From assembly GCF_018860155.1 (NCBI RefSeq), contig NZ_JAHKNI010000001.1, forward strand, positions 943,333 to 1,007,332: DNA of 64,000 nucleotides. Reading direction: 5' to 3'. Below, piece by piece: positions 60,262 through 60,538 of this stretch (the first letter of the stretch is position 1; every line of letters begins with the position of its first letter). This DNA is from Nocardia albiluteola (GTDB taxonomy: Bacteria; Actinomycetota; Actinomycetes; Mycobacteriales; Mycobacteriaceae). A program made the translations under genes and the position numbers. Under the pieces are notes generated by a model, which ran no database searches, had not been told where the DNA came from, and saw only the letters and a program-made list of their open reading frames with translations.

Positions 60262-60378
60262 GTGAGTGGAGCGCAGCGGAACGAACCATCGGTGCCGCGC
60301 GCCACGCGCACGACGTTGCAGGGCATCGGCGAGGCGGCGTCCACGACGATGCCGAGCGCTAGCGAGGTATCGGTGTGA
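60262..60378 (+). CDS. mini-ORF of cassette A
   Basis: 38 aa, MSGAQRNEPS ... MPSASEVSV. GTG 60262; its TGA overlaps the GTG of cassette B. No ribosome binding site ahead; possibly leaderless from TACGAT. Confidence 0.55.
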   Translation: MSGAQRNEPSVPRATRTTLQGIGEAASTTMPSASEVSV

Positions 60379-60458
60379 GTGGAGCGCAGCGGAACGAACC
60401 ATCAGCACTGCGTGGTGCACGCACGTCGATGCCGAGCGCTAGCGAGGTATCGGTGTGA
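60375..60458 (+). CDS. mini-ORF of cassette B
   Basis: 27 aa, MSGAQRNEPSALRG ... MPSASEVSV. Start and stop both overlap neighbours (GTGA). Confidence 0.55.
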   Translation: MSGAQRNEPSALRGARTSMPSASEVSV

Positions 60459-60538
60459 GTGGAGCGCAGCGGAACGAGCCATCGGCACTGCGTGGTGCAC
60501 GCACGGTGATGCCGAGCGCTAGCGAGGTATCGGCGTGA
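60455..60538 (+). CDS. mini-ORF of cassette C
   Basis: 27 aa, MSGAQRNEPSALRG ... MPSASEVSA. Its TGA (60536-60538) overlaps the senX3 GTG (60535-60537), so ribosomes finishing it can start senX3. Confidence 0.55.
   Translation: MSGAQRNEPSALRGARTVMPSASEVSA

What the first reader, a model, noticed from the sequence alone, without database searches (positions are those of the whole stretch)
60262..60538. Tandem 3n+2 coupling cassettes upstream of senX3, a MIRU-like element in a non-mycobacterial genome
Three repeats (113, 80, 80 bp) each encode a GTG-to-TGA mini-ORF. Every stop overlaps the next start as GTGA, and the last overlaps the senX3 start. All periods are 3n+2, the spacing needed to keep this overlap on duplication. 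Mycobacterial MIRUs (77 and 53 bp, also 3n+2) do the same job between senX3 and regX3. Here the repeats sit before senX3, and senX3-regX3 overlap directly. The sequence differs from what I know of MIRUs, so this looks like an analogous or deeply divergent element family. Copy-number change could tune kinase expression.
Basis: partly seen in the sequence, partly recalled or inferred. Interest (0 to 1): 0.93.

Follow-up and report, generated by a model that had tools for sequence, protein, structure and literature searches.

The report
Stackable start-codon lock repeats in actinobacteria
Three short repeats sit exactly on the start of the senX3 sensor gene of this Nocardia genome and belong to a repeat family found at gene starts in many actinobacteria; each carries a tiny reading frame and an RNA hairpin predicted to cover the next start codon, so translating the tiny frame would likely be what lets the gene be read.

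Summary
Repeats of 113, 80 and 80 bp at 60262-60534 each encode a mini-ORF joined to the next by GTGA, the last to senX3. They belong to a dispersed family: 147 matches in 93 arrays in this genome (a lower bound). In 68 of 89 non-duplicate arrays, RTGA overlaps chain into the downstream ORF. 54 of 59 Nocardia genomes searched, this one included, carry the family. Relatives occur in Micromonospora, Streptomyces, Kitasatospora, Nocardioides, Kribbella, Catellatospora and others, and in a genus taken to be Mycobacterium.

Units hold two covarying hairpins. The 3' one usually pairs the next start codon (ATG with CAT, GTG with CAC) and buries GAGG at -11. Proposed mechanism: translating the mini-ORF opens the hairpin and delivers a ribosome to the next start.

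senX3 is an insertion site. 117 of 150 Nocardia genomes match the empty site, a TACGAT box 6-7 nt before GTG (inferred leaderless); only this genome matches the occupied pattern. At argJ-argB, 28 of 29 relatives show the bare ATGA overlap and one carries a different cassette.

The elements work like MIRUs; membership is unproven. Start-codon insertion with -4 coupling is already described for MIRUs. New are the breadth, the start-codon hairpin and the leaderless insertion. No expression data exist.

The parts
60250..60255 (+). TACGAT, -10 box of the inferred leaderless senX3 promoter; 6 nt before the first GTG
   Evidence: Sequence. Box kept 6-7 nt before the senX3 GTG in the 117 of 150 same-genus genomes that match the empty-site pattern; CGTACGAT present in 23 of 23 aligned relatives. 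Leaderless start is inferred.
60262..60374 (+). Cassette 1 (113 bp); mini-ORF 60262-60378, GTG to TGA
60342..60377 (+). Possible 3' hairpin of cassette 1, pairing the GTG of cassette 2
   Evidence: Forms when the unit is folded alone; in its -45..+20 context that GTG is paired with probability only 0.06, so this copy is doubtful
60375..60454 (+). Cassette 2 (80 bp); mini-ORF 60375-60458, 27 aa
60422..60457 (+). Predicted 3' hairpin of cassette 2, pairing the GTG of cassette 3
   Evidence: start paired 1.00
60455..60534 (+). Cassette 3 (80 bp); mini-ORF 60455-60538, 27 aa, ends in the senX3 start (GTGA)
60502..60537 (+). Predicted 3' hairpin of cassette 3, pairing the senX3 GTG
   Evidence: fold; covariation; senX3 start paired 1.00
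60524..60527 (+). GAGG (Shine-Dalgarno-like) at -11 to -8 of the senX3 start, inside the hairpin
   Evidence: GAGG at exactly this place in 61 of 62 complete arrays with a coding downstream ORF
60535..61809 (+). senX3, histidine kinase, 424 aa
   Evidence: orthologues in 23 same-genus genomes, a regX3 start motif on the same locus in 22 of the 23
61806..62495 (+). regX3, response regulator, 229 aa; ATGA overlap with senX3
   Evidence: PDB 2oqr RegX3
45969..46052 (-). Second, single-unit cassette of the family in this window (80-bp unit 45973-46052), running into a short-chain-dehydrogenase-like gene (45241-45972)
   Evidence: R1 E 2.7e-7; gene name recalled from its sequence

Best explanation
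The repeats are members of a dispersed family of short cassettes that sit on RTGA gene starts, and each is predicted to act as a translational relay: the incoming ribosome would read a roughly 27-codon mini-ORF, melt an RNA hairpin that hides the next GAGG and start codon, stop at TGA and restart on the overlapping RTG. Shown by sequence: dispersal, tandem stacking, RTGA overlaps, an open mini-ORF frame, GAGG at -11, covariation of predicted hairpins that include the start codon, and empty sites in relatives. Inferred: that the mini-ORFs are translated; that the hairpin lowers uncoupled initiation; that cassettes insert (by an unknown machinery) because an RTGA insertion leaves the gene product unchanged. 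At senX3 the cassettes would replace direct leaderless initiation by a three-step relay from the same promoter; elsewhere (for example argJ-argB, hisD-hisC, pyrR-pyrB; names recalled from sequence) they extend a -4 operon overlap.
For: 68 of 89 non-duplicate arrays form complete RTGA chains into the downstream ORF; in 62 that ORF scores as coding, and in 36 of the 68 an upstream ORF's TGA is the first RTGA. GAGG at -11..-8 in 61 of 62. Hairpin: 98.2% of outer pairs form, against 84.4% (maximum 88.9% of 1000) with arms swapped; first start base and its partner are G-C 38, A-T 18, T-C 1. The downstream start codon is paired with mean probability 0.92, against 0.58 for shuffled upstream sequence and 0.45-0.54 for the array-entry start. 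In 69 cassettes of named genomes 0.81 against 0.46 and 0.46, and 38 double-side changes in both hairpins against 11.9 shuffled, 0 of 500. Frame without internal stop in 86 of 86 units, against 45 and 44 of 86 in the other frames; synonymous share 0.40 against 0.26 and 0.21. Empty sites: senX3 117 of 150, none of the other 149 matches the occupied pattern; argJ-argB 28 of 29 bare ATGA opening on ArgB, 1 with another 80-bp cassette.
Against: No expression, ribosome-profiling or transcript data. 21 of 89 arrays do not chain (units of 70, 72, 78, 81 bp, eroded ends, or no clear downstream gene). Of the window's own three junctions, that of cassette 1 is not predicted to be locked in context (0.06; the other two 1.00). 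R1 was built only from units with RTGA at both ends, so the RTGA share is biased; the less biased test used the 5' motif only: 61 of 78 chain, 12 open an ORF directly, 5 neither, against 207, 1289 and 870 of 2366 control RTGA sites. Codon-position entropy shows no third-position excess over the whole unit, so the peptide itself is not strongly selected. Fold energies of single units are at most modestly below shuffles (z 0.3 to -2.9). 32 of the 149 other genomes matched neither senX3 pattern. No mobility protein was sought.
Confidence: 0.74

Rival explanations
1. Purely selfish short mobile element: RTGA is just a target that tolerates insertion, and mini-ORF and hairpin exist only to keep it harmless, with no regulatory effect on the host gene. 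(Overlaps with the best explanation; the two confidences are not exclusive.)
For: Lineage-specific occupancy, counts from 0 to at least 77 among 59 genomes of one genus, eroded copies, presence in unrelated operons. A 2025 review says MIRUs likely insert with minimal impact (PMC12548453, passages).
Against: Does not by itself explain a hairpin that pairs the host gene's own start codon with compensatory switches; a neutral element need not lock the start. It is compatible with the mechanism above and differs only in host effect.
Confidence: 0.45
2. DNA- or RNA-level element (REP/MITE-like palindrome, protein-binding site or mRNA stabiliser) whose open frame is incidental to high G+C.
For: Conserved hairpin cores at both ends; weak peptide conservation.
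Against: Other frames carry stops in 41-42 of 86 units while the mini-ORF frame has none; a coding ORF follows in the same orientation in 71 of 89 arrays; GAGG and RTGA spacing fixed in 61 of 62; a G-U pair is the commonest state at one hairpin position (28 of 34), as expected for RNA rather than DNA.
Confidence: 0.12
3. Misjudged gene starts: the repeats are coding or untranslated leader of senX3-type genes and do not move.
For: Units look like short leaders.
Against: 23 of 23 aligned same-genus relatives have the promoter box directly before the senX3 GTG with no cassette motif in 600 bp; the repeats precede coding ORFs in 71 of 89 arrays of this genome, in unrelated operons.
Confidence: 0.03

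Closest known systems
MIRU (mycobacterial interspersed repetitive units; Supply et al. 1997, recalled; summarised in PMC12548453, passages read)
   Same: Dispersed, tandem, 3n+2 bp, mini-ORF joined at -4 to its neighbours, inserted at start codons. The senX3-regX3 type MIRU was found here: a 53-bp unit ending in the regX3 ATGA (L176; its RegX3 matches PDB 2oqr). A GAGCGNAGCGA core is shared and is recognised by model R2.
   Different: 80/77-bp units, different 5' half, start codon paired in a covarying hairpin (over 12 MIRU loci the next RTGA or RTGC is paired with probability 0.02-0.99, over the 8 that have RTGA 0.02-0.84; which is the true start was not checked), upstream of senX3 rather than between senX3 and regX3, and used at an inferred leaderless start.
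65-bp cassettes in genus g18 (taken to be Mycobacterium from the RegX3 match), seen here
   Same: RTGA ends, tandem period 65, found by R2; next start paired 0.71 against 0.47 shuffled and 0.49 at entry in 19 units.
   Different: Shorter centre, weaker lock; no literature name known to me.
Bicistronic design (BCD) expression parts (search listings only; mechanism recalled)
   Same: Short first cistron with a buried ribosome-binding site and stop-start overlap feeding the second gene.
   Different: Synthetic; here natural, repeated and apparently mobile.
Ordinary -4 (NTGA) operon coupling (PMC12548453, passages)
   Same: Identical overlap geometry; the bare argJ-argB ATGA junction in 28 of 29 relatives.
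   Different: No inserted repeat.

Membership tests
MIRU | 40-100 bp repeats dispersed over the chromosome, some in tandem | tested here: met
   147 matches, 93 arrays, mostly 80 or 77 bp, 1-5 links per complete chain; cassette 1 with 113 bp is outside the range
MIRU | Mini-ORF overlapping neighbours at -4, same orientation, 3n+2 period | tested here: met
   68 of 89 arrays; 21 of 89 not
MIRU | Insertion at start codons | tested here: met
   Empty sites at senX3 and argJ-argB
MIRU | MIRU sequence | tested here: inconclusive
   Recalled MIRU core absent from G000 and every genus but g18 among 151 genomes; R1 against MIRU loci best E 0.095; R2 E 2.8e-4, and its 10 best matches are MIRUs, but the loci were picked by a pattern that holds the shared core
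MIRU | Position between senX3 and regX3 | tested here: not met
   Repeats precede senX3; senX3 and regX3 overlap directly
MIRU | Mycobacterial host | tested here: not met
   Genus g1 includes G051 and G009, whose contig lengths equal those of Nocardia anaemiae and N. pseudovaccinii records
MIRU | Copy number varying between strains of one species | not tested
   One genome per species was held
Known Rfam RNA family | Match to any of 4227 models | tested here: not met
   0 matches at E<=1 over 59900-60700
Translational coupling element | Downstream output depends on upstream translation | not testable with these tools
   Needs reporters or ribosome profiling

The most novel reading that the evidence does not exclude
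Actinobacteria carry a phylum-wide superfamily of mobile, self-stacking translational relays: RNA start-codon locks that drop onto RTGA starts, keep the gene product intact, and make its translation conditional on ribosomes delivered through the mini-ORF. MIRUs would be one mycobacterial branch that lost the start-codon lock, and at leaderless genes such as senX3 the element converts direct initiation into relay initiation.
Probability: 0.45. Interest if true: 0.86.

Novelty: new variant of a known kind. Interest (0 to 1): 0.76.

Why it matters
What MIRUs are for has stayed open since 1997 (recalled). A family spanning many actinobacterial genera, with compensatory changes that include the host gene's start codon, turns this into a testable structural hypothesis. 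It also offers natural insulated two-cistron parts, warns annotators of 27-codon false genes and shifted gene starts, and gives paired empty and occupied sites for measuring what insertion does to expression.

Tried and rejected
A central hairpin (columns 36-48 of A1) was noted but not pursued: RNAalifold shows it but it competes with the 3' hairpin for column 48. Model R1 alone did not connect to MIRUs significantly. Peptide function was considered and set aside: the synonymous share is raised but entropy is flat over codon positions. The 70-bp units were first read as 3n+1 cassettes; they do not chain by themselves and look eroded or fused. Rows dropped: 4 duplicate arrays; 12 hits near a locus end or running off it (5 and 7); 5 of 63 parsed named units left out of A2 when it was typed (L194, one of two copies each of L204 and L218, L249, L256), A2 being the other 58 plus 3 own units. 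Papers: nine searches showed, in their listings, no report of this family outside mycobacteria in the held open-access library; that library lacks most subscription journals, so absence from print is not claimed. PMC12548453 and PMC2734929 were read by passages only; all others as listings.

Full report
Observation. The window shows three head-to-tail units at 60262-60374, 60375-60454 and 60455-60534, each a GTG-to-TGA mini-ORF whose TGA lies in the GTGA that begins the next unit, the last being the senX3 start. senX3 and regX3 overlap as ATGA. All coordinates and the 3n+2 periods of the finding are correct. The RegX3 protein matches PDB 2oqr RegX3 at E 5e-126; SenX3 is a PhoR/PnpS-type kinase below the NCBIfam cut-offs, so its name rests on the operon. 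The gene upstream, a CocE/NonD hydrolase, ends at 59962, 300 bp away, so no upstream gene overlaps the array.

A dispersed family. A blastn of one unit against the window's own genome (G000, 9.59 Mb) gave 52 matches, with 40 of 93 candidates scored. The 5' motif with up to 3 mismatches gave 52 hits and 0 for its reversed control. A covariance model R1 from 34 distinct units gave 147 matches at E<=0.01 with 150 of 19828 candidates scored, a lower bound. They form 93 arrays; 4 are copies in a region shared by contigs C3 and C34, leaving 89. R1 was trained on units with RTGA at both ends, which favours such hits.

Anatomy of arrays. Following stop and start codons from the first RTG, 68 of 89 arrays pass only through -4 RTGA overlaps into the downstream ORF; 62 of these ORFs score as coding by a codon model trained on this window. 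In 36 of the 68 the first RTGA is also the stop of an upstream coding-like ORF of at least 60 codons. Unit lengths in these chains are mostly 80 (61) and 77 (29); being 3n+2 follows from the chain definition, but the tandem periods of 80 and 77 do not. Chains hold 1 (41), 2 (15), 3 (9), 4 (2) or 5 (1) links. The remaining 21 arrays do not chain, many with units of 70, 72, 78 or 81 bp. Flanking genes, named by me from their sequences, include argJ-argB, argF-argR, hisD-hisC, pyrR-pyrB, fbiA-fbiB and comEA-comEC.

Reading frame and start signals. Of 86 units of 77 or 80 bp none has an internal stop in the mini-ORF frame, while 41 and 42 have one in the other frames; single-base codon differences are synonymous in 0.40 of cases in frame and 0.26 and 0.21 in the others, although entropy shows no third-position excess overall. 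GAGG stands at exactly -11 to -8 of the gene start in 61 of 62 complete arrays with a coding downstream ORF.

Hairpins. Single folds of most units tried put the next GTG in a 3' stem. On 34 units the 3' hairpin forms in 98.7% of cells, with 9 double-side changes against 1.8 in shuffles (0 of 500) and at most 45% paired when slid. With one unit per array (57 distinct of 82), outer pairs form in 98.2%, against 84.4% with arms swapped between arrays; the first base of the next start and its partner are G-C in 38, A-T in 18, T-C in 1. The downstream start codon is paired with mean probability 0.916 (62 arrays), 0.583 after shuffling the upstream 45 nt, and only 0.45-0.54 for the start at which the array is entered. 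In the window itself the senX3 start and the cassette 3 start are paired at 1.00, the entry start at 0.56, but the cassette 2 start at only 0.06 in its context, so the hairpin of the 113-bp cassette 1 may not hold.

Covariation across genera. Alignment A2 holds 58 of 63 units parsed from named genomes plus 3 own units. Fourteen pairs named by me for both hairpins form in 91.7% of cells, with 38 double-side changes against 11.9 in shuffles (0 of 500): 21 in the 5' hairpin and 17 in the 3' one, whose two helices are paired in 86% and 84% of cells. The 5' hairpin pairs the mini-ORF's own start base with a pyrimidine: A-U 39, G-C 20, G-U 2 in A2; over all 90 motif hits A-T 57, G-C 27, G-T 3, A-C 3. 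The search pattern allowed both letters at each place but did not tie them; the 3' half was not in the pattern. Both states occur within Micromonospora, Nocardioides, Nonomuraea, Kitasatospora and Actinopolymorpha (titles, sequences), which argues for repeated co-change.

senX3 is an insertion site. In 23 of 23 same-genus relatives the senX3 GTG closely follows a conserved CGTACGAT and no cassette motif lies within 600 bp. Over 150 same-genus genomes, 117 match the empty-site pattern; the occupied pattern matches only G000, and 32 match neither. TACGAT ends 6-7 nt before the GTG in these matches, the geometry of a leaderless transcript (inferred). Seven of 89 arrays have a TANNNT box within 16 nt of the first RTG, all starting at -12 to -14. 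At argJ-argB, 28 of the 29 relatives fetched (of 58 others with a match) show a bare ATGA that opens directly on ArgB, and one, G009, has a different intact 80-bp cassette at the same place, an independent occupation.

Distribution. Of 20 sites fetched from other same-genus genomes, 17 end their mini-ORF on the expected RTGA; of 20 weaker sites, 16 of them outside the genus, 15 do. Of 78 usable hits, 61 chain into an ORF of at least 60 codons, 12 open one directly and 5 do neither, against 207, 1289 and 870 of 2366 control RTGA sites. Model R2, from A2, hits 34 of 246 genomes of the class at E<=1e-4, in 17 of 103 genera, with only 18 candidates scored per genome, so most sampled genomes showed nothing at that depth.

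MIRUs. A MIRU core recalled from memory occurs only in genus g18 among 151 genomes of the family (6 genomes). One locus, L176, is a 53-bp unit ending in the regX3 ATGA beside a RegX3 nearly identical to 2oqr. R1 does not recognise MIRUs significantly (best E 0.095). R2, which contains none, places MIRUs in all ten best matches over the 12 loci (E 2.8e-4 to 0.032; the other two MIRUs 0.59 and 1.7), largely through the GAGCGNAGCGA hairpin core, which the pattern used to pick the loci also holds. MIRU next starts are not consistently paired (0.02-0.99). The same genus also carries 65-bp cassettes in tandem: R2 hits in 15 of 40 genomes at E<=0.01, 21 of 30 loci parsed as RTGA units, one of them (L340) doubtful; in 19 of exactly 65 bp the next start is paired at 0.71 against 0.47 shuffled. 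Common origin is therefore suggested, not shown.

Mechanism and verdict. The parts fit an RNA-unfolding plus reinitiation relay: the mini-ORF crosses the hairpin that hides GAGG and RTG, and ends on that RTG. The review PMC12548453 (passages) describes both coupling models and states that MIRUs appear mobile and insert at start codons with -4 coupling, so that principle is known. New here are the non-mycobacterial, many-genus family, the covarying start-codon hairpin, and insertion on an inferred leaderless start. PMC2734929 (passages) reports that fpg1 transcript fell with decreasing repeat length in M. tuberculosis isolates, which makes dosage effects plausible but does not test them here. 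Translation, hairpin function and the moving machinery remain untested.

Noticed in passing
window 45969-46052 (-): A second cassette of the family, ATGA type, with a TAAGCT box starting 12 nt before its first ATG and an upstream ORF ending in the same ATGA.
   Followed up: partly
G000 contigs C3 (about 32844-195178) and C34 (about 71987-234382): Four arrays are identical with flanks on two contigs in mirrored order, pointing to a duplicated stretch of roughly 160 kb or an assembly artefact.
   Followed up: no
L041-L063, about 45-65 bp upstream of senX3: A block reading roughly RTGACCTGCNNGAAACTTC recurs upstream of the senX3 promoter box in the same-genus relatives and, with small changes, in the window; it may be a regulator site.
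   Followed up: no
L328-L357 (genus g18): 65-bp RTGA cassettes in tandem at period 65, in a genus that also has MIRUs (both in genome G166).
   Followed up: partly
window 21067-21237 and 55102-55226: Other tandem repeats (21/42/63-bp and 25-bp periods), apparently unrelated to the cassettes.
   Followed up: no
L320 (G009, taken to be Nocardia pseudovaccinii): Independent intact 80-bp cassette at the argJ-argB junction that is bare in 28 other relatives.
   Followed up: partly
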